A stretch of DNA of 64,000 nt, from positions 36,091,288-36,155,287 of the forward strand of contig CM055819.1 in the NCBI GenBank assembly GCA_029582265.1, given 5' to 3'. Source of the DNA: Zoroaster sp. YZ-2022. Taxonomy: Eukaryota; Echinodermata; Asteroidea; Forcipulatida; Zoroasteridae. Each line of letters starts with the position of its first letter. Position 1 is the first letter of the stretch. Made by a program: the position numbers and the translations under genes. Positions 10,701 through 61,065 of this stretch are shown piece after piece. The notes under the pieces were generated by a model. That model was not told the origin of the DNA. It made no database searches and saw nothing but the letters and a program-made list of their open reading frames with translations.

Positions 10701-13700
10701 TGTTCGCATTGTTTAAATTAAGTAACAAGACTTAAACACTATGTTGCAAGAACATTCTTTAATTTGTCAATGTTTTAAAATAGTGAATACTGGGCATTTT
10801 GCAGTCGAATCCGAATCACAAACATCGAGTCTGAGTTATACGAGTCCGAAGGGTCAAGTCCGCGTCCGAATCGGAGTCATAGTACATAGTGACTCGAGTC
10901 CGAGTCCGAGTCACCAAAAAAGTAACTCGAGTCCGACTCGAGTCCGAGTCCCTACAAGTCTGAACAAACGACATATCCTCATTAGCTGAAGTCTCATGTC
11001 GCATGCACATACCTCTTCGCAAATACCACAGTGAGCACCGGCACGTGGAAGACCATTTGCGCAATAAATGCTGGTCTATCTATATAACGACAAAACCTTA
11101 CATCCCCAGATATTGTCTATCAATGTTACTGAATAACAGTAAGCCACGCTTTTCTTCCATTTTGTGTGTTCAGTTTAATAACGCAACGTAGAGATGCAAC
11201 GCGCACGTATATTTGTGAAGTATCCATTGTTCTCATTCAGGAAAAGTAATGTTTGAATTAGTGTTATCCATGTTCAAGCGGTTGCTGACATCATTCTCTT
11301 ACAATTGATTGAGGCTCACAAGGTCGTTTAGAGCTCCGTCCTGGACATCAGTGGATGTTTTACCTGTGGGCCGCATCCTGGTAAATAAACAATGTAAAAT
11401 AACAAACATTTACTAATCCATACCGAAATTTAAGACGGAACAAATTAAAGATGACATGTGTTTATTTTTTAAGCCCGAAATCTGAACAAAAATATGCAGA
11501 TAGAAGCGAACATGGATTGAGGAAGCCCTATCTTCACCACACTGCAGCACATGGATTGAGGTAGTTCTATCTTAACCACACTTCAGCACATTTCAAACCC
11601 AAGATGCAGACCCCAATTATAAAAAAAAGAACAATGTCTTACATATACAAGGTCGTTAGGTTCGTGAGTCCATCGAAGGCGTGGCTATGTATGATTTCTA
11701 GAATACCCTCGACACTCCTTAAAAACAAACAAATAAATTTACTACATATGTGTCGGGGTGGATCCAGAAATCAGATGGAAGGGATGAATTTTGTAATTGA
11801 CGGAGTAATTATATGGGGAACAGTTTAAGAAAATTCCCGAATTATTAATGCCTCTTATATCGCTTCAGTTGGATGTGTTTGGTGTGTAGGCGACTAGGCG
11901 TACATTGATTGGCACATCCAATGCTTCGGCACGAAGGCATATTGCATGAAACTTTGCGTCAATGTTTTTTAGCATTCATTGGGGGGGGGGGGCTAATAGT
12001 GGCTAAATGCACTTAATCAGGGAGATGAATGCTTTGGCTCCACCCAAGCCCCCTCCTGTATCCATGTGTATTTCATTTTTGTAATAAAATTAACATGCTC
12101 GTTTTCAATGCAACAATATTCTCATAAAGACTTAAAGAACGTTAACTCGTAAAAGATAATAACAATGTTGTTTACTTGTTATAAATATATTGTTGGTAAT
12201 GAGAAGCATTTTTGAAAGGTCCCAGCATGGACACTTGAAACCGACCCTTCTATGAGGCAATTGGTACGCAGTGATTATAAGTGCTGCTCCTTTAATTACA
12301 CGTCATAATATTGGGTTAAACATTTGTTTCATTTTTCACACCAGCTTTATCTTTAGTGCAGCTGAGAGTTTTGAATAAGGTTGCAATTTATTTTGGAAAA
12401 AAGTATCCAAGTACAGTATAATGAAGCATGGTTCCACCTTTATTTTGTGCTTGACTGCAATAGAATTTGAAAGAAACAAAATTTGTTTCATATTTTCATA
12501 TCATATTGTTGAGTCTTTAAAAGGTTAAATAAGTTGAATTCTGATATTTAATGCATCAAATGATTTTAGACTCGTACCAAGAGGGCCTAGTGCACAATTT
12601 ATTCTGGAATTATTCTATTTTAATTGTTAAATAATGATTAACCTCATAGGGTCTGCTATGAGCTTTGTTTCGTTCTCGTTGTTGGGGAGGGGGACATATA
12701 GTGCCACCCATATTTTCTCTGATCGTCGGCCGGAGATGTTCACTGGAACAACATCTATAAATTGTCATAACATTATTTCCCACATGACATCGTTTGGGGG
12801 CAATACTCTCATTTGAACATTTATCAGTTGGTCTTCAGCTTGGCACAGATATAGCAGGTATATTTACTTAAGTTAACAAATCCAAATTATGTGCATTTTC
12901 ACCAAACATTTTAAATCAGTTGGTAAATGCTGCGTAATTGAAATTTATGAATTGAATACATCCAAGGTTTGAAGATTTTTTAGACCATCAAATGTTCCAG
13001 GTGCAATTTCACTGATATTGTTGTTCTCCAGAAATCTAACATGGGAAAACAGAGTAGGGTTAAAATATTCTATTCAAGCCAATTTATTTGGTTATTTTCA
13101 CCTATGTTCTTTGATTTACTGAAAACAAACATGTATCATGCCCGAGGTTTACTATTTTAAGTAAATAAAACTATAAGTGAATCTTATAGATGAATAGACA
13201 ATAGTTTATTGCATCAAATTAAACAACATAAATGCCCTTGTGCAGCTGAGAGTTTTTGATTGAGGTTACATTTAATTTTGGAAAAATGAGGCATGGTTCC
13301 ACCATTTGGCCACAAACTTCTTTTTGTGCTTAATTATTTGACAAATAAGTATGTTATTTGAAATATCTTTATGTTTATAAACCAACAAAGTGAAAACAAA
13401 CCAATTTAAAGCATATAGCAATGCTTGTTATAAATGCGTTGCATTAATTCAATAAATTGTGTTCATTTTATCATTGCATATAAAGAGGAATGGAAAACGT
13501 GTTCTCTCACTAAGGATCATTTGATACACTATGTACAATACACCAACGTTTAGTATATAGAGTGCACTATTAGAATGTGATCCAATCCTATAATGAAATA
13601 ATGTGTCATATTTTCATATCATGTTGTTGAGTCTTTAAAAGGTTTTAAAAAAAGTTGAATTCTGATATTCTGATATTTAATGCGTCAAATGATTATAGAT

Positions 13701-16700
13701 CCACTTTGACTTGTACCGAGAGAGTGTAGTGCACAGTAATTTCTCATTTTTCATGGCACTGATAGCGCAAATTTATTTTATTTTGTAATTAAATAATTAT
13801 TAACCCCATAAGGTCTGTTCTTTGTTTCCAAAAAATATTTCTTCCATTCATTTACCTGAATATTTATCACTTGATCTTCAGCTTAAGTCACCACTAGAGA
13901 GCGCTCAAGAATGTGGGTAATTTTGAGCAAACCCAAATCATTTCCATTTTCACCAACCATTTTGATTTATAGGTAAAACTTGTAGCTTTGCATGGTAACT
14001 TTGTAAGACTAATTGGGGTGACACCATGTGAAATTCTCAATTGAGTAGTAATTAGTAGTAATTAGTAAATATCAGGAGAATCCTGAGGACGATCAGAGCA
14101 TACTGATCGAAACGTCGAGTTGTATACCTCCTGTTCTTTTCAGAACTAATCACGACTCAATTGAGAATTTCACATGATGTCACCGCAATTAGTCTTACTC
14201 ATTTTGATTTATGTTCAATAAAATCACATAATCACAAACAGATTGTATTTCAATCGGCAAACATGAACTTCACACTTCATCTATATCTGTTTGTTGTCAG
14301 ACTTAACTTCAGTCAAGATAAATCGGTTGCTCGATGCTGTGTGACTGAAATTTATGACATGAACACTTACAAGGTTTGAAGACTTCGCAGATCATCAAAT
14401 GTTCTTGGTGCAATTTCACTGATGTTATTGTGAATCAGAAATCTAACATGACAAATCAAAGTAGGGTTAAAACATTGTATTAATTCAAGCCAACTTATTT
14501 GGTTATTTTCACGTATGTTCTTAGACCATTAGATGTTTCCCATCAGCGATCTAAGATGTGCAAACAAAGTTGGGTTGAAACAAAATTATTAAAGACAATA
14601 TGGATATTTTCACTAATGTGCTTAGGTTTTTCTGAAAGCACTGAAACGTTGCAATGGCATCAGACAATCTTGACATGTATCATGCCAAAGGTTCACGTAT
14701 TTTGGAAAATAAAATCACGATAAACATAAATAGACAACAGTTGAGTGCATCGGAATTTCAAAAAGGTTTGTTGTCCTCCAGGCCTTTCATTGACAAGTGT
14801 TTTTCAATTGGCACACATGAACTTCGCACTCCATCAATTTTTTTGCCGAGAGATGTAGCTTCAGTCAAGAGAAATCGGTTGCTCGATGCTGCGTGATTAA
14901 AATGTATGACACGAATACTTACAAGGTTTGAAGACTTCGTAGACCATCAAATGTTCCTGGTGTAATTTCACTGATTGTGTTGTTTTCCAGCGCTCTTAGA
15001 TGGGAAAACAGTAGCATTAAAACAAAATCATTAAAGGCCGGTAATATGGTTATTTTCAACAATGTTCTTAGATTTTCCTGAAAACATAGTTTGTGAAATG
15101 TTTTCATGGTATCAAACAAGTTGAAATGTTCCTGTCTAATGTTCAATCATTTTTTTAAATTAACTTTACAAATGAATCTCAACAGACAACAGTTGAGTGC
15201 TGTCCACCGTAAATTCAGTAAAGAAGATTTGATGGCTTCATGCTGTGTGAGTAAATATCATTCTTAGATTTTCCTGAAAACATAGTTTGTGAAATGTTTT
15301 CATGGTATCAAACAAGTTGAAAATGTTCCTGCCTAATAATTTTAATAAAAGTAACTTCATCAATGAATTTCAAGTGCATCGAGAAATAAAAGAGGGAAAA
15401 TATAAAAAGGTATGTTTTTTTTAGAAATTTAAAATTATAAGTGAATCACGATAGGCAACACTTGGGTTCATCAAAAATACTCAAATTACAGTTGACCAAA
15501 ATCTAACAGAACAGTGTTCAGATTGTGACCTGCCTAACCACGAAAACAGTGGGTACTGCGTTTGAATCATCGGAAAACTTACAATTTGATGAGATTGTGT
15601 AGACCATCAAAAGTTTGGGGTGCAATTTTACTGATATTGTTGTTCTGCAGATATCTAAGATGGGAAAATGAAGTATGGTGAAAAACATTGTATTGAAACA
15701 TAAATAATTTGGTAATGTTTAAAAACGTTTTCAGATTTCACCTGATGAATGCATACTTTTTGAAACGCTGTCATGGTATCAAACAATCTGACAAATGATC
15801 ATGTCTGAGGTTCACTGAATAATACACAATACTAAAGTACATCGACATAAACAAAGGTTCAGTGGCATACTACCCTGCATTGACGAGTGTTATAGTGTTG
15901 GTAAAGCTTTTGAAAATGTTGCTGATTACGTTGTGTCATATCGAGACAATAGTGAAAATACAGACAGATTTTTCAACTGGTAAACATGAACTATAAACTA
16001 GTTTTGAATTTGTTTCACTGTCCACCGTAAATTCAGTAAAGAAGATTTGGTGGCTTCATGCTGTGTGAGTAAATATCATGGCATGAAAACTAACAAGTAA
16101 GTGAGCTTTTGAAGAGCACCAAATGTTCCTTGTGCAATGAACTGATATTTTTCCGAGTGCAATTTAACTGATTTTGTTGTTGGAAAGCAAGCTTCAATTT
16201 GAAAACAAAGTAGCGTTAAAACAAAATCATTAAAGTCTATTAATTTTGTTATTTTCACCAATGTTCTTGGGTTTTCCTGAACTTTACTCTTTGAAACATT
16301 GTAACAGTATCAGACAATCTTAACATGTATCGTGCCCAAAGTTCACTTATTTTGGAAAATAAAATCACAATAAACATCAATAGACAACAGTTGAGTGCAT
16401 CAGAATTTCAAAAAAGTTTGTTGGCCTACAGGTCTTTCATTGACAAGTGTTTTTCAATTGGCACACATGAACTTCGCACTCCATGAAATTTTTTGCCGAG
16501 AGATGTAGCTTCAGTCAAGAGAAATCCGTTGCTCGATGCTGCGTGATTAAAATGTATGACCCGAATACTTACAAGGTTTGAAGACTTCGTAGACCATCAA
16601 ATGCTCCTGGTGTAATTTCACTGATTGTGTTGTTTTCCAGCAGTCTTAGATGGGAAATGAGTAGCATTAAAACAAAATCATTAAAGGCCTGTAATATGGT

Positions 16701-19700
16701 TATTTTCAACAATGGTCTTAGATTTTCCTGAAAACATAGTTTGTGAAATGTTTTCATGGTATCAAACAAGTTGAAAATGTTCCTGCCTAATGTTCAATCA
16801 TTTTATGAAATTATAACTTCACAAATGAATCTCAACAGACAACAGTTAAGTGCATCGAGAAATAAAAGAGGGAAAATATAAAAAGGTACGTTTCTTTTTA
16901 GAAATTTAAAATTATAAGTGAATCACGATAGACAACACTTGGGTTCATCAAAAATACTCAAATTACAGTTGACCAAAATCTAACAGAACAGTGTTCAGAT
17001 TGTGACCTGCCTAACCACGAAAACAGTGGGTACTGCGTTTGAATCATCGGAAAACTTACAATTTGATGAGATTGTGTAGACCATCAAAAGTTTGGGGTGC
17101 AATTTTACTGATATTGTTGTTCTGCAGATATCTAAGATGGGAAAATGAAGTATGGTGAAAAACATTGTATTGAAACATAAATAATTTGGTAATGTTTAAA
17201 AACGTTTTCAGATTTCACCTGATGAATGCATACTTTTTGAAACGCTGTCATGGTATCAAACAATCTGACAAATGATCATGTCTGAGGTTCACTGAATAAT
17301 ACACAACACTAAAGTACATCGACATAAACAAAGGTTCAGTGGCATACTACCCTGCATTGACGAGTGTTATAGTGTTGGTAAAGCTTTTGAAAATGTTGCT
17401 GATTACGTTGTGTCATATCGAGACAATAGTGAAAATACAGACAGATTTTTCAACTGGTAAACATGAACTATAAACTAGTTTTGAATTTGTTTCACTGTCC
17501 ACCGTAAATTCAGTAAAGAAGATTTGGTGGCTTCATGCTGTGTGAGTAAATATCATGGCATGAAAACTAACAAGTAAGTGAGCTTTTGAAGAGCACCAAA
17601 TGTTCCTTGTGCAATGAACTGATATTTTTCCGAGTGCAATTTAACTGATTTTGTTGTTGGAAAGCAAGCTTCAATTTGAAAACAAAGTAGCGTTAAAACA
17701 AAATCATTAAAGTCTATTAATTTTGTTATTTTCACCAATGTTCTTGGGTTTTCCTGAACTTTACTCTTTGAAACATTATAACAGTATCAGACAATCTTAA
17801 CATGTATCGTGCCCAAAGTTCACTTATTTTGGAAAATAAAATCACAATAAACATCAATAGATAACAGTTGAGTGCATCGGAATTTCAAAAAAGTTTGTTG
17901 GCCTACAGGCCTTTCATTGACAAGTGTTTTTCAATTGGCACACATGAACTTCGCACTCCATGACATTTTTTGCCGAGAGATGTAGCTTCAGTCAAGAGAA
18001 ATCGGTTGCTCGATGCTGCGTGATTAAAATGTATGACACGAATACTTACAAGATTTGAAGACTTCGTAGACCATCAAATGTTCCTGGTGTAATTTCACTG
18101 ATTGTGTTGTTTTCCAGCAGTCTTAGATGGGAAAACAGTAGCATTAAAACAAAATCATTAAAGGCCGGTAATATGGTTATTTTCAACAATGTTCTTAGAT
18201 TTTCCTGAAAACATAGTTTGTGAAATGTTTTCATGGTATCAAACAAGTTGAAAATGTTCCTGCCTAATGTTCAATCATTTTATGAAATTAACTTCACAAA
18301 TGAATCTCAACAGACAACAGTTAAGTGCATCGAGAAATAAAAGAGGGAAAATATAAAAAGGTACGTTTCTTTTTAGAAATTTAAAATTATAAGTGAATCA
18401 CGATAGACAACACTTGGGTTCATCAAAAATACTCAAATTACAGTTGACCAAAATCTAACAGAATAGTGTTCAGATTGTGACCTGCCTAACCACGAAAACA
18501 GTGGGTACTGCGTTTGAATCATGAAAACTTACAATTCGATGAGATTGTGTAGACCATCAAAAGTTTGGAGTGCAAGTTTACTGATATTGTTTTTCTGCAG
18601 ATATCTAAGATAGGAAAATGAAGTATGGTGAAAAACATTGTATTGAAACATAAATAATTTGGTAATATTTAAAAATGTTTTCAGATTTCACTTCATGAAT
18701 GCATACTTTGTGAAACGCTGTCATGGTATTAAACAATCTGACAAATGATCATGTCTGAGGTTCACTGAATAATACACAACACTAAAGTGCATCGACATAA
18801 ACAAAGGTTCAGTGGCATACTACCCTGCATTGACGAGTGTTATAGTGTTAGTAAAATTTTTGAAAATGTTGGTGATTACGTTGTGTCATATCGAGACAAT
18901 AGTGAAAATACAGACAAATTTTTCAACTGGTAAACATGAACTACAAACTAGTTTTGAATTTGTTTCACTGTCCACCGTAAATTCAGTAAAGAAGATTTGG
19001 TGGCTTCATGCTGTGTGAGTAAATATCATGGCATGAAAACTAACATGTGAGCTTTTGTAGAGCACCAAATGTTCCTGGTGCAATGAACTGATATTTTTAC
19101 AGGTGTAATTTAACTGATTTTGTTGTTGGAAAGCAAGCTTCAATTTGAAAACAAAGTAGCGTTAAAACAAAATCATTAAAGTCTTTTAGTTTTGTTATTT
19201 TCACCAATGTTCTTGGGTTTTCCTGAACTTTACTCTTTGAAACATTGTAACGGTATCAGACAATCTGAACATGTATCGTGCCCAAGGATTACTTATTTTG
19301 TAAAAATAAAATTACAATAAACATCAATAGACAACAGTTGAGTGCATCGGAATTTAAACATTTTTTGTTGGCCTACAGGCCTTTCATTGACAAGTGTTTT
19401 TCAATTGGCACACATGAACTCACTCCATCAAATTTGCTGCCGGAAGATGTAACTTCAGTCAAGAGAAATCGGTTGCTCGACGCTGCGTGATTGAAATTTA
19501 TGACACGAATACTTACAAGGCTTGAAGACTTCGTAGACCATCAAATGTTCCTGGTGTAATTTCACTAATTTTGTTCATTCCCAGCGATCTAAGATGGGAA
19601 AACAAAGTAGCATTATTGAAAAGAAAAATCATTAAAGCTCATAAATTTAGTCATTTTCACCAATGTCCTCAGGTTTTTCTCAAAAGATACTCTTTGAAAC

Positions 19701-22700
19701 TTTGCATCAAGTTTGTTGTCCTCCAGGCCTTTCATTGACAAGTGTTTTTCAATTGGCACACATGAACTTTGCACTCCATCAATTTTTGCTGAGAGATGTA
19801 GCTTCAGTCAAGAGAAATCGGTTGCTCGATGCTGCATGATTGAAATTTATGACACGAATACTTACAAGGTTTGAAGACTTTGTAGACCATCAAATGTTCC
19901 TGGTGTAATTTCACTGATATTGTTGATTCCCAGCCCTCTAAGATGGGAAAACAAAGTAGCATTAACAAGAAAAATCATTAAAGATCATTAATTTAGTCAT
20001 TTTCACCAATGTCGTCAGGTTTTTCTCAAAGAATACTCTTTGAAACTTTGCATCAAGTTTGTTGTCCTACAGGCCTTTCATTGACAAGTGTTTTTCAATT
20101 GGCACACATGAACTTCGCACTCCATCAAAATTTTTGCCGAAAGATGTAGCTTCAGTCAAGAGAAATCGGTTGCTCGATGCTGCGTGATTGAAATTTATGA
20201 CACAACTACTTACAAGATTTGAAGACTTTGTAGACCATCAAATGTTCCTGGTGTAATTTCACTAATTTTGTTCGTTTCCAGCCCTCTAAGATGGGAAAAC
20301 AAAGTAGCATTATTGAAAAGAAAAATCATTAAAGCTCATTAATTTAGTCTTTTTCACCAATGTCCTCAGGTTTTTCTCAAAAGATACTCTTTGAAACTTT
20401 GCATCAAGTTTGTTGTCCTCCAGGCCTTTCATTGACAAGTGTTTTTCAATTGGCACACATGAACTTTGCACTCCATCAATTTTTTGCTGAGAGATGTAGC
20501 TTCAGTCAAGATAAATCGGTTGCTCGATGCTGCGTGATTGAAATTCATGACACGAATACTTACAAGGCTTGAAGACTTTGTAGACCATCAAATGTTCCTG
20601 GTGTAATTTCACTGATATTGTTCATTCCCAGCCCTCTAAGATGGGAAAACAAAGTACCATTAAAAAGAAAAATCATTAAAGCTCATTAATTTAGTCATTT
20701 TCACCAATGTCCTCAGGTTTTTCTCAAAACATACTCTTTGAAACTTTGCATCAAGTTTGTTGTCCTCCAGAACTTTCATTGACAAGTGTTTTTCAGTTGG
20801 CACACATGAACTTCGCGCTCCATCAATCTTTTTGCTGAGAGATGTAGCTTCAGTCAAGAGAAATCGGTTGCTCAATGCTGGGTAAGTGAAATTTAAGAGA
20901 TGAATACTTACAAGGTTTGAAGACTTCGTAGACCATCAAATGTTCCTGGTGTAATTTCACTGATATTGTTCATTCCCAGCCCTCTAAGATGGGAAAACAA
21001 AGTACCATTAAAAAGAAAAATCATTAAAGCTCATTAATTTAGTCATTTTCACCAATGTCCTCAGGTTTTTCTCAAAAGATACTCTTTGAAACTTTGCATC
21101 AAGTTTGTTGTCCTCCAGGACTTTCATTGACAAGTGTTTTTCAGTTGGCACACATGAACTTCGCGCTCCATCAATCTTTTTGCTGAGAGATGAAGCTTCA
21201 GTCAAGAGAAATCGATTGCTCAATGCTGGGTAAGTGAAATTTAAGAGATGAATACTTACAAGGTTTGAAGACTTCGTAGACCATCAAATGTTCCTGGTGT
21301 AATTTCAGTCAGCTAAGTCCTAGACTTCCACTGGTATCATGTAAACCAGTGCTAGCTGTTCCATGGTCGGGTCGTCGGCGACTAAACCGGCTCCCCCACT
21401 TGGCCTCGGCCTCGTGCGGAGGGTGTTGGAGACACCCAGCAGGACTAAATACAAGACCTGTCAAAGGGCGGATGAGCTCTTTATGAGCCAACGGCCATCT
21501 CCTGCAGCCAATGTTGGCGCCAACGTATTGACCTCTGTCTTTCCTTGGAGCCCGCCAGCGGAGGTCAAGTGTGGTTCCTGCAGCTTGGGCAACGCTGGAG
21601 CCCTCATTCTCGCCCGGGCAAGTGCAGTGGACAGGACACTCCATCGCGGCGTCGTAAAAGCGCCGAGGCAACAACACGGCAGAGCGACAGTCTACGGGTT
21701 CTAAGCTCCAGTCAGATTGGCGTAAGATGGAGCACCACGGGTCCTCTGCGTCGGTGGGAGAGATCATCGTGTCTCAATGGTCAGCTACCGCCTGCCTCAA
21801 GCCAGGCAGCCCCTGGCCAGCTAGGTGCTGACCCGCCACGTCTATTGCTTCGATGGGGTGGTCGGAGCAAGCATGGACGTTAAAACCTCACCTACCAACC
21901 AAAGGAAAACTCAAAACCGTAATCAAGAGCGGAATTTAAATATACATCTCCGGCTGGGAAGCTGGAACGTTCGTACCATGTGTCCGGGATTCACCGCGGA
22001 TCCAGACTGCAACCTACAGAGACAAGGCGCAACGCGCAAAACAGCACTGATTGACCGGGAGCTGGCCAAGCTTGTAGTCGACGTTGCCGCGCTTCAGGAA
22101 ACCAGACTAGCCGAGTCTGGTTCTATCAAAGAGCAGAACTACACTTTCTTCTGGATGGGAAAAGCCGAAGATGAACATCGCACACACGGCGTAGGCTTTG
22201 CAGTGTCCAACAAGCTGGTGCATGAGTTCGACACCCCTGTTGGTGTGTCAGAAAGGATCATCTCCATGACGCTCAAGCAATCTGCCAGCCCAACACATCT
22301 GATCTGTGCCTACGCCCCCACGGTGTCGAGCGAAGCTGCGGTCAAGGACCAGTTCTACGACAGCCTAGCAGGCGTCCTGTGCAAGATTCTCCCTGAGGAC
22401 TGCGTGGTGCTGCTCGGCGATTAAAATGCTCGTGTCGGCGCCGATTATCTCGCATGGCCGGATGCAATCGGTCGCTTCGGTGTCGGGAAAATCAACGAAA
22501 ATGGACAGCGTGTTCTCGAGCTGTGCAGTCAACACGGGCTCTGCATTGCTAACACCTGGTTCCAGCAGAAGCAACGGCGGCGGGTGACATGGATGCATCC
22601 TCGGTCAAAGCACTGGCACCAGCTTGACTTGGCTTTGGTCAGAAGACGAGACATTGGCCTAGTCAGGTGCTCCAGAACGTACCACACTGCCGATGGTGAT

Positions 22701-43700: not shown

Positions 43701-46700
43701 TAAAATAGAAATAAAAGTAGCCTAGGCCTTAAAACAAAAAAAATAAATTAAATAATAATAAGTTGATAATATTTGTAAAATTTTTTTTTTAAAAACGGCT
43801 GTGATTATGAGCAATCTTTATAATAAAATCTGGATTTCCAAAAGTTTCCCCAAAGTTCCTAACGTAATTCATGTTTAACACGTTAAGTACACTTACACTA
43901 AACCCTCCCTGAATTACCACTGATCACATTTGATCTAACCATGGAGGAAGGAATGATTTACTCGTCATGCCCACTGCTTTTTAATTTTAGCGTTGTTGAT
44001 TGACATTTTACATTTTCATAATAAAACGAAATACACTCCATCTACATACCTTCACTGTTCTTGCTTTTCTTTGCGGAAAAAACTCAGAAGTGACTGTGAC
44101 TGGCGTTTTGACGCCATCACGCACGCACAAAATCCTCACATAAATAAACACGGACCACGTGAAGCCCAGAAGAAAGTAAACGTAAACACCACGCTTCCGA
44201 AAGTTTTCAACTAGTCTGGTTCCCAGACCCCAAAATCTCTGACTGTTCTGTCGATTTTATTCAGATTTTTTAGGCAATTTTTGGTCAGGGAACCAGACTA
44301 CAAGTGAGAGCGATTTGTGTGAAAGCGCCCTCTGTTGGCGATGTATAGTGAATAAGGAACTTGTCAACAAGATCGAGGGAACGTGTTCTTCATTGCGAGA
44401 TCGCATGGGTTAGCGGTCATGATAGAATCACATTATTCATGACAAACTAAATAACTGTTTTAATTCTCCAAATATAATTTTTGTGTTTAACATATTTTAA
44501 GTTGATGAAATTATCATTATTATTACGAATTATAATTTGTTTCTCCTGCATTTTTTTTCGCCCCAAAGTAGCCGGCGCCGGCGCCGAAGTAGCCGGTCAA
44601 ATTCGCCGGTTGCCGGCTTGTTTTGAAACCCCTGGTTATCAGACAATCTTAACATGTATCGTGCCCAAAGTTCACTTATTTTGGAAAAATAAAATCACAA
44701 TAAACATCGATAGACAACAGTTGAGTGCATCGGAATTTCAAAGAAAAATTTTTGGCCTACAGGCCTTTCATTGACAAGTGTTTTTCAATTGGCACACATA
44801 AACTTCGCACTCCATCAAAAATTTTGCCGAGAGATGTAGCTTCAGTCAAGAGAAATCGGTTGCTCGATGCTGCGTGATTGAAATTTAACACATGAATACT
44901 TACAAGATTTGAAGATTTTGTAGACCATCAAATGCTCCTGGTGTAATTTCACTGATTGTGTTGTTTTCCACCACTCTTAGATGGGAAAACCGTAGCATTA
45001 AAACAATATCATTAAAGTCTGTTAATATGGTTATTTTCAACAATGTTCTTAGATTTTCCTGAAAACACAGTTTGTGAAATATTTTCATGGTATCAAACAA
45101 GTTGAAAATGTTCCTGCCTAATGTTCAATCGTTTTATAAAATTAACTTTACAAATGAATCTCAACAGACAAAAGTTAAATGCATCGAGAAATAAAAGAGG
45201 GAAAATATAAAAAGGTAGTTGGATTTTTTAGAAATTAAAAATTACGACAAAATACGAGTGAATCACGATAACAACACTAGGGTTCATCAAAAATACTCAA
45301 ATTACAGTTGACCAAAATCTAACAGAACAGTGTTCAGATTGTGACCTGCCTAACCACGAAAACAGTGGGTACTGTGTTCGAATCATGAAAACCTTGGGAT
45401 GCAATTTTACTGATTGTTGTTCTGCAGATGTCTAAGATGGGAAAATGAAGTATGGAGAAAAACATTGTATTGAAACATAAATAATTTGGTAATATTTAAA
45501 AACATTTTCAGATTTCACTTTATGAACACACAAGCGAAGTTACCCGATCTGAAGATCGGGTTTGGAGCGGTTGGAGTTGGGTGAATTAAGGAGCGTGGGG
45601 ATGAAGGGTTGATAGAGTGGAGGTGTGTAATTGGCCAGTGTGTGACTGAAGGAGGGGTTGATGTGAAAGGAAAGGTGCTGACATTTGACAACTCGTATGA
45701 ACAAAGTTGCGCAAATGCGCAAACGACTCTGTGCGCTAACATGAATGCCCTGAAATGCGCAAACAACACTGTGCGCTAACATGTGGACATTTTGCACACG
45801 ACACTACTTTACGCAAAGAACACACCGCGCGAGCGCTGTTGCAAGATTTGAGAAGACCATGCTTGATGCCATGCACACACAAAACGCATAAACACAACAC
45901 GCATACACGTGTGAGCCATAACGGCTGTTACACGAGTGAGCCATAACGGCTGTTGTATGTAAGATTTAAGAAACACCACGAAAGTGTGGCCGTTGCAGTA
46001 TTTAAGCACACGGGTCAAGAATAACACAACACCTATAGCAAATACAGACTCGAGAGGGAGTGCGTTCGGACAACTGACGGGTCCCGAACGACGGCCGCTG
46101 CATGACAAAAAGCAGTGAATAAATGCGGAAAGGCGGCGATTCGCCTGTGACGCAAAAACGACGTCTTCGGCGGAGCCGGAAGGGCGACGACGACACCCTG
46201 TGGATTTTTCCCGACACGCAGGTACCCCTCCCGAGCCGCGGGACCCTGCGGTTCCGGAGCCTATATATAACAAACCTTTTAGACGGGCCTAAGGATTTCG
46301 CTCTTATTAAATTAGATAGATACTTTGTGAAACGCTGTCATGGTATCAAACAATCTGACAAATGATCATGTCTGAGGTTCACTGAATAATACACAACACT
46401 AAAGTGCATCGACATAAACAAAGGTTCAGTGGCATACTACCCTGCATTGACGAGTGTTATAGTGTTGGTAAAGTTTTTGAAAATGTTGCTGATTACGTTG
46501 TGTCATATCGAGACAATAGTGAAAATACAGACATTTCAACTGGTAAATATGAACTACAAACTAGTTAGATGTTCGAGCTATAGCGCGAACACCTCTTGTT
46601 ATTAGGTGTTCGAGTATGTGCCCGAAACACCTATTGTTTTTTTTTGTTCAGTTTTTTAGGTGTTCGGGTATGTACCCGAAACACCTATTGTTTTTGTTCG

Positions 46701-48875: not shown

Positions 48876-48907
<32 letters not shown>

Positions 48908-51900
48908 CCCCCATCTTGTCCGCAAACAAAAACATACTTGCAAACTTCACATGAACTTGAAACTTGGCATGTACTTAGAACTTAACAAGTAGATGAAACT
49001 CCAGTTGTGAGTGACCCCGATTTGACCTTACTTCCTGTCCAAACCGGAAGTCAAATATTTAATATTTAAAAAAATCATATCTCAACAACCACAACAGGTA
49101 AATGGACATTTTTTGCACTATTGTATAGATTGTTAATTGTCGAAAAATATTTACAAAAACATGACCCCAATTTGACCTTACTTCCTGTCCAAACCGGAAG
49201 TCAAAGTTTAATATTTAAAAAAAAAAATATCTCAACAACCACAAGAGGTAAATTCACAATTTTTGTACCATTATACAGATTGTTAATTGTCGAAAAATAT
49301 TTACACAAAGGTGACCCCAATTTGACCTTACTTCCTGTCCAAACCGGAAGTCAAAGTTTAACATTAAAAAAAATCATATCTCAACAACCACAAGAGGTAA
49401 ATTCACAATTTTTGTACCATTGTACAGATCGTTAATTGTCGAAAAATATTTACAAAAAGGTAACCCCAATTTGACCTTACTTCCTGTCCAAACCGGAAGT
49501 CAAAGTTTAATATTTAAAACAAATCATATCTCAACAACCACAAGAGGTAAATTCACAATTTTTGTACCATTATACAGATTGTTAATTGTCGAAAAATATT
49601 TACACAAAGGTGACCCCAATTTGACCTTACTTCCTGTCCAAACCGGAAGTCAAAGTTTAATATTTTCAAAAAATCATATCTCAACAACCACAAGAGGTAA
49701 ATTCACAAATTTTGTACCATTATACAGATCGTTAATTGTCAAAAAATATTTATACCCCAATTTGACCGTACTTCCTGTCCAAACCGGAAGTGAAAGTTTA
49801 ATATTTAAAAAAATCATATCTCAACAACCACAGGAGGTAAATTGACATTTTTGTACCATTGTACAGATTGTTAATTGTCAAAAGTATTTACACAAAGGTG
49901 ACCCCAATTTGACCTTACTTCCTGTCCAAACCGGAAGTCAAAGTTTAATATTAAAATAATTTCTAAATTCAGTATTGTATTGTATTCAAATAAACTTCTC
50001 GCGAGAACTTCAACAGACGTTAACATTTGACTTCTCCAACACTTCGAATTGATGACGTAACCATTTTAACTTCAACCGAACACCTTGTTTTTGTTGTGAC
50101 AAAAACTTATATCTAGTTTTTTCTTCTTCTTCTTCTTCTCCGGATCAATTGTCTACAAGTGCAAACTTCACATGAACTTGAAACTTGGCATATACTTAGA
50201 ACTTAACACGTAGATGAAACATAATTTGTGACGTCATGATGAGGTCATCAGATATCGAATTACGATAAATCAAAGTTTAATATTTTAACAAATCATAACT
50301 CAACAACCACAAGAGGTAAATTCACAATTTCCAAACCGGAAGTCAAAGTATAATTTTAACAAAAATCATCCACAATTCACAATCTTTGCACCATTGTACA
50401 GATCGTTAATTGTCAAAATATATTTAAACAAAGTTGACCCCAATTTGACCTTTACGTCGTCCCGAACACCTAGTGTTTGTCAATACAAACATTAATCTCT
50501 AGTTTTGAATTTGTTTCACTGTCCACCGTAAATTCAGTAAAGAAGATTTGGTGGCTTCATGCTGTGTGAGTAAATATCATGACATGAAAACTAACAAGTA
50601 AGTGAACTTTTGTAGAGCACCAAATCTTCCTGGTGCAATGAACTGATATTTTTCCGGGTACATTTTAACTGATTGTGTTGTTGGAAAGCAAGCTTCAATT
50701 TGAAAACAAAGTAGCGTTAAAACAAAATCATTAAAGTCTATTAATTTTGTTATTTTCACCAATGTTCTTAGGTTTTCCTGAACTTTACTCTTTGAAACAT
50801 TGTAACTGTATCAGACAATCTTAACATGTATCGTGCCCAAAGTTCACTTATTTTGGAAAATAAAATCACAGTTGACCAAAATCTAACAGAACAGTGTTCA
50901 CTGTTCAGATTGTGACCTGCCTAACCACGAAAACAGTGGGTACTGCGTTTAAATCATGAAAACTTACAATTGGATGAGATTGTGTAGACCATCAAAAGAT
51001 TGGGTTGCAATTTTACTGATACTGTTGTTCGGAAGATATCTAAGATGGGAATATGAAGTATGGTGAAAACATTGTATTGAAACATAAATAATTTGGCAAT
51101 ATTTAAAAACGTTTTCAGATTTCACTTTATGAAAGCATACTTTGTGAAACGCTGTCATGGTATCAAACAATCTGACAAATGATCATGTCTGAAGTTCACT
51201 GAATAATACACAACACTAAAGTGCATCGACATAAACAAAGGTTCAGTCGCATACTACCCTGCATTGATGAGTGTTATAGTGTTGGTAAAGTTTTTGAAAA
51301 TGTTGATGATTACGTTGTGTCATATCGAGACAATAGTGAAAATACAGACATTTTTCAACTGGTAAACATGAACTAAAAACTAGTTTTGAATTTGTTTCAC
51401 TGTCCACCGAAATTTCAGTAAAGAAGATTTGGTGGCTTCATGCTGTGTGAGTAAATATCATGGCATGAAAATTAACAAGTGAGCTTTTGTAGAGCACCAA
51501 ATGTTCCTGGTGCAATGAACTGATATTTTTTCCGGGTGCAATTTAACTGATTTTGTTGCTGGAAAGCAAGCTTCAATTTGAAAACAAAGTAGCGTTAAAA
51601 CAAAATCATTAAAGTCTTTTCATTTTGTTATTTTCACCAATGTTCTTAGGTTTTCCTGAACGTTACTCTTTGAAACATTGTAACGGTATCAGACAATCTT
51701 AACATGTATCGTGCCCAAAGTTCACTTATTTTGGAAAATAAAATCACAATAAACATCGATAAACAACAGTTGAGTGCATTGCAATTTCAAAAACGTTTGT
51801 TGGCCTACACACAGGCCTCCCATTGACAACTGTTTTTCGATCGCACACATGAATTTTACACTCCATCAAATTTACTGCCGGGAGATGTAACTTCAGTGAA

Positions 51901-54900
51901 GAGAAATCGGTTTCTTGATGCTGTGTAATTAAACTTTAACACATGAATACTTACAAGGTTTGAAGACTTTGTAGACCATCAAATGTTACATTTGAAATTT
52001 TACTGATTTTGTTGTTTTGCAGCAATCTAAGATGGGAAAACAAAGTAGCATTATTACAAAGAAAAATCATTAAAGTTCATTAATTTGGTCATTTTCACCA
52101 ATGTCCTCAGGTTTTTCTCAAAGCATACTGTTTGAAACTTTGCATCTAAATTTTAATGAAACGTTTGTTGTCTCCCAGGCCTTTCATTGACAAGTGTTTT
52201 TCGATCGGCACACATGAACTTTGCACTCCATCAATTTTTTGCTGAGAGATGTAGCTTCAGTCAAGAGAAATCGGTTGGTCGATGCTGCATGATTGAAATT
52301 TATGACACGAATACTTACAAGGTTTGAAGACTTTGTAGACCATCAAATGTTCCTGGTGTAATTTCACTGATATTGTTGATTCCCAGCCCTCTAAGATGGG
52401 AAAACAAAGTAGCGTTATTGAAAAGAAAAATCATTAAAGCTCATTAATTTTGTCATTTTCACCAATGTCCTCAGGTTTTTCTCAAAAGATACTCTTTGAA
52501 ACTTTGCATCAAGTTTGTTGTCCTCCAGGACTTTCATTGACAAGTGTTTTTCAATTGGCACACATGAACTTCGCGCTCCATCAATCGTTTTGCTGAGAGA
52601 TGAAGCTTCAGTCAAGAGAAATCGGTTGCTCAATGCTGGGTAAGTGAAACTTAAGAGATGAATACTTACAAGGTTTGAAGACTTTGTAGACCATCAAATG
52701 TTACATCAAATTTGCTGCCGGGAGATGTAAACTTCAGTCAAGAGAAATCAGTTGCTCGATGCTGTGTAATTGAAATTTAACACATTAATACTTACAAGTA
52801 TTGAAGACTTCGTAGACCATCAAATGTTCCTGGTGTAATATCAGTGATATTGTTCATTTCCAGCGATCTAAGATGGGAAAACAAAGTAGCATTATCACAA
52901 AGAAAAATCATTAAAGTTAATTAATTTGGTTATTTTCACCAATGTCCTCAGGTTTTTCTCAAAGCATACTGTTTGAAACTTTGCATCTAAATTTTAATAA
53001 AATGTTTGTTGTCCTCCAGGCCTTTCATTGACAAGTGTTTTTCAATTGGCACACATGAACTTCGCGCTCCATCAATCTTTTTGCCGAGAGATGTACATTG
53101 TAGCTTCAGTCAAGTGAAATCGGTTGTTTAATGCTGGGTAAGTGAAATTTAAGACATGAATACTTAGAAGGTTTGAAGACTTCGTAGACCACCAAATGTT
53201 CCTGGTGTAATTTCACTGATTGTGTTGTTTTCCAGCACTCTTAGATGGGAAAACAGTAGCATTAAAACAATATCATTAAAGTCTGTTAATATGGTTATTT
53301 TCAACAATGTTCTTGGATTTTCCTGAAAACACAGTTTGTGAAATATTTTCATGGTATCAAACAAGTTGAAAATGTTCCTGCCTAATGAATCTCAATAGAC
53401 AACAGTTAAGTGCATCGAGAAATAAAAGTGGGGAAAGTATAAAAAGTTTGCTGTACTTTTTAGAAATTTTAAATTACAAGTGAATCACGATAGACAACAC
53501 TGAGGTTCATCAAAAATACTTAAATTACAGTTGACCAAAAGCCATTAGGGATTTTAGTCACGTGACATTTCATTCTCAATTTGCGCTGTAGCAGCACTCC
53601 TAATTCGTTTTAATTAAAGAAAAAATATAAAACAATGAACTATAATTGTTGTGGTGATATATTGTCTCATATCTGTTGAAATTTCAATTCATTACAAGCA
53701 ATACTTCTGAAGATACAGGGCCGGAAAGATTGAAAATATGGGGAAAATCGAGTTCTTGCTGCGTGCGGGACGCGTGACCCCACTTTTTAGACGGGTCAAC
53801 CTACATTTAGCCGCACTCTTTTGCGTTTACGCACGAGTTAACGGAAATGTACTGTTATAAAAATGATACCATCTGAAAGGGGAGAAAACATGCTTCATTT
53901 TGAGGGGTCAAACAAATATTTCGACCAGGAATAACCGAAACGGCACCAAAAAGAAAACTTCAATTGATTTTTTTCTCAGTACAATAAATAAATATTTCTT
54001 TCATTTGACCCCTAATCATGACTACCAATGATTACAAATATAATATCTGCAATTACTTTGGTGATTAACTGAGAAGAAGTCATGCGTAGGTCACTATTTT
54101 CAAAGGGTATATTTTGTACTTTTACATGATTCCTTATTCACTAAATTTGCCGGTCTTGTTCCCTGTATAAACGTATACGCATCGTATACAGACGGGCAAT
54201 AAACTACATGTATACTTGTGGCTACTATGCGTGCATGCGCTGTATGAACTGTCAATGTTAACGTGTTGGACCCGTTTCTAATTATTTTCAACATCAGGTA
54301 CATACGTACTTTGTTAAAATATTTATGTCATCAAAGTAACATGGTAACAGAGCTAATTTTAATGCATTATCCATGCAAAATGATTTAACAACAGATCACT
54401 CTAACTGAATTTCCTGAATTTGATATAAAATACTAACATATTACTGAAGCTGTGGTTACTATTGTTGTTATTACTTTTGGTAAAATAATAACAAATTGGT
54501 TCATTTCCATAGCAACACGATAATTATGCATAACATCTTCAGAGATTGTACATATCATGTTGAAATATATAGGTTAATAAAACATGGATTAAGTTTTACC
54601 CGTTTTGCAAAATAAAACACCAAATTACACATGTTATATGTTTCTATTTATTATACTTATTGAAAATGTCATGTTTCCACGGCAACGGTTTTCATTCAGC
54701 AATTAAATATCGTTAGTCCATAGACCTTATTTCGTTTTTCTAAAGTTGAAATTTTTGTGCAAATCCATAAAGAAATAGTGCAGATATAAAGAACATTTAT
54801 TAAAATTGTATGCTAAACGGTGCTGCTGCCCTTTCTATTCCGCAGAAGGCAAAAAACTTAGAAAAATGCATAGGCCTTTTTAGTTTTAAAATTGTATTAT

Positions 54901-57900
54901 CTCAGCAAAACTAACTCCGATTTGAACCCAATAAAGTGCATTGTTCAGCATTAAATGATACCTTTCCAATGGCTTCACGCTTGATGCAGCGGGACACAGG
55001 GTTAATTTTCACCTGAAAACCCTAACAGAACAGTGTTCAGTTTGTGACCACCCTAACCACGAAAACAGTGGGTATATAATACTGTATTCAAAACCTTCCC
55101 AACGTAAAATGAATTAAGCTTCACTTTGTTTATTAACCCTAACTCCCTAGGCATTGTACTAAAACAATAAAAATCCTTCAAAATCCTCCAGCTGGCTTTG
55201 TTGTCTAGGGAGTTAGGGTTAAGCTGGCTGATCGCTTGCCACAATCAGTGAATTTATTGCTCAAATTTATTACTGAAAAGCATACTGAAAGCATACTTGG
55301 TTTAATCTAAGTGATCGGTCTAAGTGATCGGTCAAATACATACAGAAATTATTCTACCAGCAATATATAATAACTAGAATCAAAACATAATTTTGATAGA
55401 CAACACTGGAGTGCATCGATATAAAAAAAAATGGTTCAGTGACAAGTATGGGACATGTCAGGCTATTTATTATTCGGAAAAACAAAGTAGTGCACTACTT
55501 TACACTACAGTGTGGATCGTTAAAGATTAAAAGTGAAAATGCAAATATTTTGATCGGCGAACATGATCTACGTTCTACTTCTAATGTAGACCATAAAAAT
55601 ATGTTACATTTGAAATTTTACTGATTTTGTTGTTTTGCAGCCATCTGAGATGGGAAAACAAAGTAGCGTTAAAACAAAATCATTAAAGCCCGTTAATTTG
55701 GTCATTTTCAACAATGTTCTTAGATTTTGCTGAAAGCATAGTTTGTGAAATGTTTTCATACATGGTATCAAACAAGTTGAAAATGTTCCTGCCTAATAAT
55801 TTTAATAAAATTAACTTTACAAATGAATTTCAAATACATCGAGAAATAAAAGAGGTAAAACATAAAAAGCTAGGTGGATTTTTTTAGAAATTTAAAATTA
55901 GAAGTAAATCACGATAGACAACACTTGGGTTCATCAAAAATACTGAAATTACAGTTGACCAAAATCTAACAGAACAGTGTTCAGATTGTGACCAGTCTAA
56001 GGATTATTGAAATGCATAAACATTATGATCATTGGTGACTTCATCAGTCAACAGAAATCAGTTGCTCAATGCTGTGTGATTGAAATTTAACACATGAATA
56101 CTTACAATTTGAAAATTAACTTTACAAATTAATCTCAACAGACTTAAGTAAAGACTAATTGCGGTGACACCATGTGAAATTCTCAATTGAGTAGTAATTA
56201 GTTCTGAAAAGAACTGGAGGTACAATTAAGACAACAGTTAACTGCATCGAGAAATAAAAGAGGGAAAAGTAAAAAGTTGGCTGTACTTTTTAGAAATTTA
56301 AAATTACAAGTGAATCACGATAGACAACACTTAGGTTCATCAAAAATACTGAAATTACAGTTGAACAAAATCTAACAGAACAGTGTTCAGATTGTGACAA
56401 GTCTAACAGATTGTTAGATTGTCAGATTGTGACCTGCCTAGTAGGCCTATCAAACAAGTTGAAAATGTTCCTGCCTAATGTTCAATCATTTTATAAAATT
56501 AACTTTATCTCCATAGACAACAGTTAAGTGCATCGAGAAATAAAAGTGGGGAAACTATAAAACGTTTGCTGTACTTTTTAGAAATTTTAAATTACAAGTG
56601 AATCACGATAGACAACACTTAGGTTCATCAAAAATACTTAAATTACAGTTGACCAAAATCCAGTAGGGATTTTGGTCACGTGACATTTCGTTCTCAATTT
56701 GCGCTGTAGCAGCACCCCACTTTTTAGACGGCTCAACCTAAATTCAGCCGCACTCTTTTGCGTTTACGCACGGGTTAACGGAAATGTACTGTTATAAAAA
56801 TGAAAGGGGAGAAAACATGCTTCATTTTGAGGGGTAAAACAAATATTTCTACCAAGAATAACCGAAACGGCACCAAAAAGAATACTTCAACTGATTTTTT
56901 TCCCAGTACAATAAATCAATATTTCTTTTATTTGGCCCATAATTATGACTTGTTTTAGGTTACTAATGCTACAATGTTTACCCTATCTTTAATACCCGCA
57001 TTTATGTCGAACATCATTTTTCGACATAATTTGATCTTAGGCCAAAAAAAAGTCTCTAGTTTTTGGTCTCTGCGCGCGTCGCCTCAGACCCGCTCGTCGG
57101 CATTTTTAGAATTTTTTTCGATGAAATGATGTCCAAATTGCAACCAAAATCCCTGGATCGCTGGAATTCTGCCGCTGTGTTTTAAATAGCTTGTTCACAT
57201 ATGGGTATGAACGTTTGCCTGATTTGTGCAGCCTCTATTAGCTACCATACTTTGTGTATGGAAATTTGGTCTGGTTTCATTAACCGCGTAGACATGTATC
57301 ACGTATTTCACTGGTTGGCAAAAAAAAACACTTTACTAAAAAAAATAATAAAAAATAAAACGTGTCACCACTAAATTGGGCGATATTTTTTTTTCATTTT
57401 TTTTTCATCCACGATATATCGGCAAACATATCGCGATTTTCGATAGTATTCCAATTATTTTGTTCATTCATGCACGATTACTTTAGAGCTGATAACCAGG
57501 TATGTACCCTCTACAAGTATCAAAATAAATCGCAAATTTGTTTACAGAGCGTGTATGTACTTCTGAAGTAGTTCGCTTTTGTTCCTCACTTCCAAAAGCT
57601 TAAAAGACTGTCATAATTTTGTTTCCATGAAATTTCTGACTTGACTCACCATGGCACTTTTTTTAATCGCGATTTGCCGATATCTCGATAACTTAAGAAG
57701 GTTCTCGATATCGTAATCTAAAAAAGGTATCGCGATATTCGATATTATTGTGTTATCGCACAAGCTTAGTCACCACACAGATTTTGAAGCCAACCTATGA
57801 CCGGATATTCTTCCGGACTTTACACAAATGTTCAACAAACCATTTGTAGTTATTCTCACTAGACAAACGAACATTGTTAATTGAAGTGGCAGGTTTAGGG

Positions 57901-59972: not shown

Positions 59973-61065
59973 CTGAAATGCATACATATTAAAACTGAAA
60001 TGATGTTGTACGTTCTCTGAGTTTAACGAGTAAGAAAAAACACCAAACACCGGTTATAAAACGTCATTATGATAGCATTTGGATAAAACTTACATTTCGG
60101 TGAATTATTGTAATAGCCATAGATGTCTGATGTGCAATCAGGGATTTTCAGAGTGGAGGGAGGGCAAACATTTTTCGGGGTACATTTACCGACACAAAAC
60201 TAATATGAAAAGATAATTTACTTTGTTTTCCCCAAAATGGACGACCTCTAAAAAAGGGGGGACTGCCACCCGAAACCGCAGCTCTTTCCTTGAGTAAAAT
60301 ACAATGTATTACGAAGTAATAACAACTGATAACCAACAACTCGGGGAATCTCCAGTGCTTAGAAACATGATACATTTGCAGTCAGCAAACCCATAGCTCT
60401 AGGTTTGTCGATTGAAAACTTATTCTGGACCAACCTTTGTTCTAGTACCTTTGATGCTTCATTTGCTGACTGAGGCTCTAAATGCCGACTGAGAAAAATT
60501 ATTGGGGGTGTCACGCCCCCATCCCCCGCTCGCTTTACGGCCTGTGTGCAATCAATTATTAGTGGATATTACATTTTGACTGAAGTACAAAATGTCTGGA
60601 TCAATTTAGCCAATCATGGTTGTTGTGTGATGGATTTATATGCAGACATAAGCATAATGTGCGACTCCGCAACTCTCGAATTGTATTTTGTGACAACGAA
60701 CCACATCATGATAAATCAAAAGTAACATTTTCCATATGAAACAAACTACAATCCTTGATAACTGGCTTGTTTAAAGCTTTGCTGAATTTTAAACTCCAAA
60801 CATAAGTGTTTCTCTTTTTAAAAAATACGGGTATGTGTTCTTTCACTGTTAGAAATCTGAACAAATTACATCTTTAATATAATTATATGAGAGCTGTGTA
60901 ACACAGCGATGCTATTGAAATATCATCATCGTTAGAATGATCAGTGACACTGAATTGTGTGCTGCCTATGACGTGTACACAATTCAAATTGATTTTTTTA
61001 AAGGGTGGTATAGAAAACAGCGACAAAAATCAAATTTCTACGAAAGCCCATTAGTGCCATCGCTA
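59973..61065. other. receptor 5' flank, no other gene seen
   Basis: A possible 5' UTR exon may end at 60094 (minus gtaagt). No TATA box or other core promoter can be assigned. Confidence 0.4.

What the first reader, a model, noticed from the sequence alone, without database searches (positions are those of the whole stretch)
12964..55644. An LRR-GPCR gene with at least 41 intact, interchangeable 72-bp LRR exons
Known LGR/RXFP/GRL101 receptors use about 10-17 LRRs. Here 56 exon copies lie between an N-cap exon and a single 7TM exon; 41 have an open frame, exactly 72 bp, AG acceptor and GT donor. All are in the same phase at both ends, so any subset in any number keeps the frame. This is either an unusually long ectodomain (about 1000 residues of LRR) or a repertoire from which a subset is spliced, comparable in logic to Dscam exon choice or lamprey VLR cassettes.
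Basis: partly seen in the sequence, partly recalled or inferred. Interest (0 to 1): 0.92.

Follow-up and report, generated by a model that had tools for sequence, protein, structure and literature searches.

The report
Sea-star receptor with 41 LRR exons
A starfish gene for a hormone-receptor-like cell-surface protein carries a row of 41 exchangeable, intact exons whose likely binding surfaces vary fast, and related genes in the same genome are built the same way, so it looks like an inherited recognition system whose splicing now needs testing.

Summary
On the minus strand lies a complete gene: signal-peptide exon (59913-59844), Cys N-cap exon, LRR1, 41 intact 72-bp phase-2 LRR exons (52867-14371), a 69-bp C-terminal LRR exon and a one-exon LGR-type 7TM domain (7722-6654). 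Joined, they read 1,449 residues without a stop; 1000 of 1000 random ordered subsets also stay open. The genome is an asteroid-like 1.0-Gb assembly with at least 117 related 7TM exons, 116 without a stop, and 941 places matching the 3' end of these LRR exons (reversed pattern 0). One sister gene was read end to end with the same layout and 50 intact exons; two others, partly read, have 32 and 29. Amino-acid change at five concave-face positions runs 1.9-3.4 times intron divergence in four arrays, but 0.2 times elsewhere in the repeat. Apart from a recurrent dead copy type with weak splice signals, copies that keep both splice sites keep their frame. I read this as a germline-diversified recognition LGR with an exceptionally long LRR ectodomain, most exons included by default. 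Variable inclusion is open; Dscam-like choice has no positive support; no RNA was available. New variant of a known kind.

The parts
59844..59913 (-). signal-peptide exon, 70 nt, MGYLGFIVVAFMTQGFSVVMAQS, phase-1 donor GTAAGT
   Evidence: only candidate passing the filter in 16 kb here and in 8 kb of sister locus D; phase fits the N-cap exon; signal peptide inferred from sequence
59377..59494 (-). Cys N-cap exon, 118 nt (DQQCPDVCNCW...)
   Evidence: tblastn to echinoderm relatives; AG/GT; phase 1 in, 2 out
58650..58721 (-). LRR1 exon, 72 bp, identical protein in sister locus D
52796..52867 (-). array exon 1, type A
52319..52390 (-). array exon 2, type A
51955..52026 (-). array exon 3, type D
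50968..51039 (-). array exon 4, type B
44904..44975 (-). array exon 5, type A
37444..37515 (-). array exon 6, type B
36931..37002 (-). array exon 7, type D
36579..36650 (-). array exon 8, type A
36229..36300 (-). array exon 9, type A
35882..35953 (-). array exon 10, type A, donor GTAGTA
35532..35603 (-). array exon 11, type A
35182..35253 (-). array exon 12, type A
34026..34097 (-). array exon 13, type B
33529..33600 (-). array exon 14, type A
33178..33249 (-). array exon 15, type A
32827..32898 (-). array exon 16, type A
32480..32551 (-). array exon 17, type A
31981..32052 (-). array exon 18, type D
31630..31701 (-). array exon 19, type A
31283..31354 (-). array exon 20, type A
30755..30826 (-). 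array exon 21, type D
30407..30478 (-). array exon 22, type A
30059..30130 (-). array exon 23, type A
29711..29782 (-). array exon 24, type A
29361..29432 (-). array exon 25, type A
28204..28275 (-). array exon 26, type B
27707..27778 (-). array exon 27, type A, donor GTGAGT
27356..27427 (-). array exon 28, type A
25527..25598 (-). array exon 29, type B
20912..20983 (-). array exon 30, type A
20564..20635 (-). array exon 31, type A
20214..20285 (-). array exon 32, type A
19866..19937 (-). array exon 33, type A
19517..19588 (-). array exon 34, type A
18533..18604 (-). array exon 35, type B
18050..18121 (-). array exon 36, type A
17060..17131 (-). array exon 37, type B
16573..16644 (-). array exon 38, type A
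15583..15654 (-). array exon 39, type B
14923..14994 (-). array exon 40, type A
14371..14442 (-). array exon 41, type A-like
55585..55668 (-). degenerate type D copy (first base 55644) with its acceptor: frame broken, no GT where the donor should be
53168..53239 (-). open type A copy with lost donor (CTAAGT)
45382..45453 (-). frame-broken, deleted type B copy with flank; acceptor kept, no GTAAGT donor
12964..13035 (-). last LRR copy, open frame but donor GGATGT; the same dead donor in sister arrays C, D and E
11649..11717 (-). C-terminal LRR exon, 69 nt; 78-96% identical protein in loci C, D, E
6654..7722 (-). hinge plus 7TM exon including stop; phase-2 acceptor
   Evidence: PF00001; LGR fold

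Best explanation
A functional gene of a greatly expanded asteroid LRR-GPCR (LGR) family. Shown from sequence: signal peptide, N-cap, LRR1, 41 intact array LRRs, C-terminal LRR, hinge and 7TM join in frame to a 1,449-residue receptor; the array grew by local duplication; the LRR scaffold is conserved while the concave-face residues diversify. Inferred: splicing joins the exons with strong signals in order by default (skipping the dead copies, and harmless if it skips others), making a very long solenoid whose variable concave face, with the variable extracellular loop 2, recognises changing ligands (microbial, allogeneic or chemical) and signals through a G protein. Diversity is mainly germline: several to many genes, each with its own turning-over exon set.
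For: Complete open gene model; 41 intact exons with near-uniform strong donors. LGR identity: PF00001, best PDB relatives RXFP1 and glycoprotein-hormone receptors, Foldseek ranks 1-28 all LGRs. Sister gene D, no N, same order, 50 intact exons; E and C partly read. 117 7TM matches scored of 715 candidates, 116 without a stop. Concave dN over intron divergence 3.18, 3.35, 1.88, 1.93 in four arrays, every bootstrap interval above 1, elsewhere in the exon 0.17-0.22; the pattern stays without an ORF, splice or motif filter. Frame-broken copies with both splice sites: 1 (a partial match) of 161 LRR-type rows, type C left out, against about a third expected under neutral decay. Helices differ at 8 of 232 positions between two paralogues, the rest at 34 of 122.
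Against: No RNA or protein evidence. Type C: 34 copies in the four arrays, 34 of 34 with an AG acceptor, 26 with a homologous GTTAGT/GTTAAT donor, all 26 frame-broken; they would ruin any transcript that took them in, so inclusion cannot be indiscriminate, although their acceptors (TTGAAG, pyrimidine fraction 0.60 against 0.84) and donors look weak. Of the 161 rows, 9 were too short to test one of the two sites. Whole-7TM dN/dS between paralogues is moderate (0.87, 0.61, 0.50). A tree-free count gives no significant excess of amino-acid over synonymous change in the concave codons (p 0.28). Third-position change is only about half to two-thirds of intron change, unexplained. The neutral simulation assumes independent copies, so its contrast is overstated. 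Ligand and tissue are unknown.
Confidence: 0.55

Rival explanations
1. Transcript-level repertoire: different cells or transcripts include different, variable subsets of the array exons, so that one gene makes many ectodomains.
For: All exons share phase and length; 1000 of 1000 random ordered subsets stay open with, and 1000 of 1000 without, the C-terminal LRR exon; 28 distinct concave 5-mers in one array; dead type C copies between live ones must be skipped anyway; LRR and LDLa exons of LGRs are reported to be 'sometimes skipped' in RNA-seq (PMC8286064, passages).
Against: Outside type C, frame-broken exons with both splice sites, which subset choice would tolerate better, are almost absent. 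No docking or selector-like complementarity. No transcripts seen.
Confidence: 0.28
2. Dscam-like mutually exclusive choice of one or a few exons by competing RNA structure.
For: Array layout between constant exons.
Against: Best antisense match of one array unit to the flanking introns is no better than crude two-base-block shuffles (34 of 40 and 38 of 40 shuffles reach it). Symmetric exons need no exclusion.
Confidence: 0.03
3. Decaying tandem repeat, pseudogene or assembly artefact.
For: Degenerate copies, a LINE inside one exon and an LTR element in the array; type C dead copies; 500-N gaps in neighbouring stretches.
Against: 39 of 46 LRR-type rows in W have both sites and an open frame by a strict rule against 29% expected under neutrality; selection by site; no N in the window; independent sister gene without N.
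Confidence: 0.05
4. The array is mainly a reservoir of cassettes for gene conversion or unequal exchange, creating germline or somatic variants of a smaller expressed set.
For: Local turnover: 36 of 41 units match best within their own array, and none of the 32 distinct exons is shared with what was read of arrays C, D and E; low third-position divergence against introns.
Against: The intact copies keep their own splice sites, which silent donors would not need.
Confidence: 0.07

Closest known systems
GRL101-like LGRs of asteroids (Asterias, Patiria, Acanthaster)
   Same: 7TM 48-61% identical in the named asteroid rows; N-cap, LRR and hinge order; W groups with Asterias (97/92)
   Different: 7 asteroid proteins counted carry about 2-5 LRR cores, several with CUB or LDLa modules; here no LDLa was found and there are 43 LRRs if all are used
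Vertebrate LGRs: RXFP1/2, FSHR/TSHR/LHCGR, LGR4-6
   Same: fold and sequence of the 7TM; LRR ectodomain
   Different: 9 LRR cores in a Callorhinchus RXFP1 by the same count; no exon array known to me (recalled)
Unnamed many-LRR 7TM proteins of public assemblies (P0124, P0134, P0152, P0173, P0195)
   Same: about 19-40 LRR cores plus the same 7TM type
   Different: these five group with a brittle-star protein, not with W; exon layout unknown
Biomphalaria SudRes2 GRL101 cluster (PMC12297450, passages)
   Same: clustered, haplotype-variable GRL101-like genes in a region associated with parasite resistance
   Different: LDL and C-type lectin domains; no LRR exon array in the passages seen
Lamprey VLR
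   Same: LRR modules with variable concave residues (VLR side recalled)
   Different: no incomplete germline gene here; somatic assembly not testable; 7TM anchor
Arthropod Dscam
   Same: array of alternative-looking exons between constant ones (Dscam side recalled)
   Different: no sign of mutually exclusive splicing

Membership tests
LGR (LRR-containing class A GPCR) | class A 7TM of the LGR type | tested here: met
   PF00001, RXFP1/TSHR/LHCGR/FSHR best PDB sequences, Foldseek ranks 1-28 all LGR
LGR (LRR-containing class A GPCR) | N-capped LRR ectodomain and cysteine hinge in one protein with the 7TM | tested here: met
   in-frame gene model; hinge cysteines C8, C9, C22, C32 nearly invariant. 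Joining in mRNA not tested
GRL101 (LGR type C2) | multiple LDLa repeats | tested here: not met
   no LDLa by regular expression in about 55 kb upstream, which includes two 500-N gaps; a signal-peptide exon fits directly onto the N-cap exon
GRL101 (LGR type C2) | 7TM grouping with GRL101 | tested here: inconclusive
   W sits in an echinoderm group (88/97) apart from RXFP1 and LGR5/6; the two mollusc rows are unresolved
Dscam-type exon choice | mutually exclusive exons | not testable with these tools
   no RNA; docking complementarity test negative
VLR | incomplete germline gene completed by somatic cassette insertion | tested here: not met
   germline gene complete and open; somatic change not testable
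VLR | hypervariable concave LRR residues | tested here: met
   (variation among germline copies)

The most novel reading that the evidence does not exclude
About a dozen chromosome-C4 loci of this sea star form a splicing-based repertoire: each gene holds dozens of phase-compatible LRR cassettes with hypervariable concave faces (29-50 in the four read), and cells splice different ordered subsets between a constant N-cap and a constant 7TM, giving a VLR-like repertoire of GPCR ectodomains without DNA rearrangement.
Probability: 0.2. Interest if true: 0.97.

Novelty: new variant of a known kind. Interest (0 to 1): 0.85.

Why it matters
LGRs are mostly known as hormone receptors with a fixed, modest number of repeats (recalled). 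Here one branch has apparently been turned into a recognition family: many genes, arrays of dozens of intact exchangeable LRR exons, and diversification aimed at the concave face and extracellular loop 2. That would make a GPCR-coupled counterpart of LRR immune or chemosensory repertoires in a deuterostome without lymphocytes, and it makes the question of splicing-based repertoires directly testable with one long-read cDNA experiment.

Tried and rejected
Rejected: + strand gene (0 exons by the same scan); decay or artefact; premature stop in the 7TM as a lesion of this copy (sister D ends at the same place); Dscam docking (one unit, crude shuffles); LDLa upstream. Of two stretches first taken for C-terminal LRRs, 12274-12182 has no clear splice sites and was dropped; 11717-11649 was kept.

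Against my reading: a tree-free count shows clustering of amino-acid change in the concave codons (25 of 38, p 8.5e-9) but no significant excess over synonymous change there (p 0.28); diversifying selection rests on the intron yardstick, whose type A set was chosen by intactness and motif. One search drops those filters but keeps only pairs with alignable introns and no frame slip: 582 of 903 (W), 273 of 435 (C), 740 of 1431 (D), 231 of 666 (E). The count of frame-broken copies leaves out type C rows (67), and 9 of its 161 rows were too short to test one site; type C was then examined by itself. One C17 locus (10 kb) showed only 2 LRR exons about 5 kb apart, so dense arrays are not general to the family. 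Only the first 100 of 941 places were listed.

Papers: passages only of PMC6267866, PMC12297450, PMC8286064, PMC13428168, PMC4079206, PMC11863921; all others as search listings. Searches for a prior description of such arrays; none of the listings showed one; most subscription papers are not held.
Full report
WHAT IS THERE. The window is G000:C4:36091288-36155287 of a 1.0-Gb assembly. Its nearest named relatives are sea stars: the 7TM is 59-61% identical to Asterias amurensis and groups with Asterias in a tree (97/92), so I take the source to be an asteroid; no tool names the species. The gene runs on the minus strand. Its parts, with splice sites and phases, are: signal-peptide exon 59913-59844; N-cap exon 59494-59377; LRR1 58721-58650; 41 array exons from 52867 to 14371; a 69-nt LRR exon 11717-11649; hinge plus 7TM exon 7722-6654. 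The array exons are 72 bp, phase 2 on both sides. Joined they give 4,350 nt and one terminal stop, 1,449 residues. I tested 1,000 random ordered subsets with and 1,000 without the 69-nt exon: all stay open to the 7TM stop.

Thirty-two of the 41 array exons are distinct in DNA and in protein, with 28 distinct combinations at five concave positions. Of 40 gaps between neighbouring live exons, 19 are 275-280 bp and four are 1.8-7.4 kb; two of the long ones hold the LINE and the LTR element. Three families of live exons (A, B, D) and one dead family (C) recur in duplicated blocks.

IS IT MORE THAN CHANCE OR DECAY. The opposite strand has no such exon in any of four loci. The 3' end of the exon with its donor matches 941 places in the genome at up to two mismatches; the reversed pattern matches none. 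In the four arrays read here, 161 LRR-type match rows (type C left out) include 26 that are not 'both sites, frame open' by a strict donor rule; six of these have a GCAAGT donor and one W row is the exon with donor GTAGTA, so these seven may be live; nine are too short to test one site; one row, a partial match in E, has both sites and a broken frame. A simple neutral simulation with the intron substitution and indel rates expects 29% intact and 33% frame-broken-with-sites in W, and 9-21% and 30-36% in the others; 39 of 46 rows in W are intact. The simulation treats copies as independent, which they are not. Type C stands apart: 34 copies (W 9, E 7, D 13, C 5), all with AG, 26 with a homologous GTTAGT or GTTAAT donor, and all 26 with a broken frame. 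Their acceptors end TTGAAG with a pyrimidine fraction of 0.60, against 0.84 for the 152 live exons, which mostly end TCTTAG, TCTAAG or TCTCAG. I infer that they are passed over, but this is not shown, and it means that the splicing machinery must tell copies apart by signal strength.

SELECTION. Among type A exons, amino-acid change at codons 23, 1, 3, 4 and 6, the x positions of xLxLxxNx on the concave face (LRR geometry recalled), is 3.18 times intron divergence in W (bootstrap 2.53-4.23), 3.35 in C (2.41-5.07), 1.88 in E (1.17-2.63) and 1.93 in D (1.63-2.21); at the other 18 codons it is 0.17-0.22 times. That run used the parts of E and D then in hand (17 and 13 exons), and exons chosen as intact with a type A motif. 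Without frame, splice or motif filter, on full-length matches and the pairs with alignable introns, the picture is the same: concave codon positions 1+2 differ at 0.40-0.44, framework 0.07-0.11, third positions 0.09-0.15, introns 0.17-0.21 (pairs used given under Tried and rejected). A tree-free minimum-change count puts 25 of 38 amino-acid changes of W type A exons in those 5 of 23 codons (p 8.5e-9), but the excess over synonymous change there is not significant by that blunt count (p 0.28). In the 7TM, W and D differ at 8 of 232 helical positions and 34 of 122 others, chiefly the hinge and extracellular loop 2; whole-exon dN/dS is 0.50-0.87 over three pairs, two with E only in part.

THE 7TM. 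It scores PF00001; its best PDB sequence relatives are RXFP1, TSHR, LHCGR and FSHR. AlphaFold2 gives mean pLDDT 79.4, pTM 0.79 and seven long helices; Foldseek ranks 1-28 are all LGRs. The short tail after NPFLY is shared by sister D, so it is not a lesion peculiar to this copy.

SISTER LOCI. Locus D (C4:35790000-35849999, no N) has a matching signal peptide, N-cap, identical LRR1, an array at 35801599-35836925 with 50 intact exons (41 distinct proteins; five use GC donors), the C-terminal LRR exon at 35838296 and the 7TM at 35843849, 87% identical. Locus E has 32 intact exons, C-terminal LRR exon and 7TM; its 5' end was not read. Locus C has 29 intact exons and the C-terminal LRR exon; a 500-N gap lies where the 7TM would be expected. 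No exon is shared in DNA between the arrays as read, one protein is shared by D and E, and most units match best within their own array (W 36 of 41, D 41 of 50, E 23 of 32, C 19 of 29): arrays grow and turn over locally. The 7TM search scored 117 of 715 candidates, 116 without a stop; twelve places on C4 including W, and one on C3, lie at 86% identity or more. By hand, 11 of those 12 C4 places have at least one of the 40 best exon matches on their 5' side and the same strand, within about 45 kb; the twelfth (18.14 Mb) has pattern places at 18.110-18.137 Mb. Not every branch has dense arrays: 10 kb upstream of a C17 7TM (80% identity) held two LRR exons.

HOW IT MOST LIKELY WORKS. Shown: complete open gene, LGR 7TM, intact symmetric cassettes, site-specific divergence, local duplication, a large family. 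Inferred: expression, ordered inclusion of the strong exons by default, recognition of varied ligands by the concave face and loop 2, G-protein signalling. I favour default inclusion because frame-breaking copies with strong splice sites are almost absent, and because no sign of a choosing device was found. I do not exclude variable inclusion: skipping is harmless to the frame, dead type C copies must be skipped in any case, and skipping of single LRR or LDLa exons in LGR RNA-seq is reported by Veenstra (PMC8286064, passages).

WHAT IT IS LIKE. It is an LGR; it fails the LDLa feature of GRL101, so 'GRL101-like' is only a label of relatives. Seven asteroid relatives counted have about 2-5 LRR cores. 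Long LRR-GPCRs do exist in databases: unnamed proteins with about 19-40 LRR cores, five of which group with a brittle-star protein, apart from W, so a high repeat number alone is not new. New here, as far as the listings show, is the array of dozens of similar, splice-competent LRR exons in a GPCR gene with diversifying concave faces. GRL101-like genes lie in a region tied to parasite resistance in a snail (PMC12297450, passages), and one is differentially expressed in sensory tissue of the crown-of-thorns starfish (PMC6267866, passages); both leave immune and chemosensory roles open.

Noticed in passing
21246-25120: LINE-type element (+), RVT_1 in an 865-aa open frame (22425-25022), inserted inside a type A LRR exon whose halves flank it (25120-25071 and 21310-21246).
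   Followed up: partly
38542-41704: Gypsy-like LTR element frames on the minus strand (RVT_1, integrase core; 'Gypsy-like' is my reading) inside the array.
   Followed up: no
47002-49960: Tandem repeats of 149-150 bp in a large intron of the array.
   Followed up: no
61064-62940: Minisatellites of 20-22 bp upstream of the gene; one underlies a long, probably spurious open frame.
   Followed up: no
nine copies, e.g. near 51594, 50716, 42514, 34822, 29001: A dead LRR copy (type C, LLSNNKIS*) with AG acceptor and weak GTTAGT/GTTAAT donor is carried along in the duplicated blocks in four of four arrays, 34 copies.
   Followed up: yes
locus D, six rows: GCAAGT donors in six array copies of the sister gene (five pass the live-exon filter), suggesting that GC-AG introns are tolerated.
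   Followed up: no
array exons of W, C, D, E: Third codon positions diverge at about half to two-thirds of the intron rate (dS/K 0.21-0.51); unexplained (exonic splicing signals or exon-biased gene conversion?).
   Followed up: partly
G000 C17, C13, C10, C8, C1, C5 and others: Further clusters of related, mostly open 7TM exons at 65-80% identity, a family of at least 117.
   Followed up: partly
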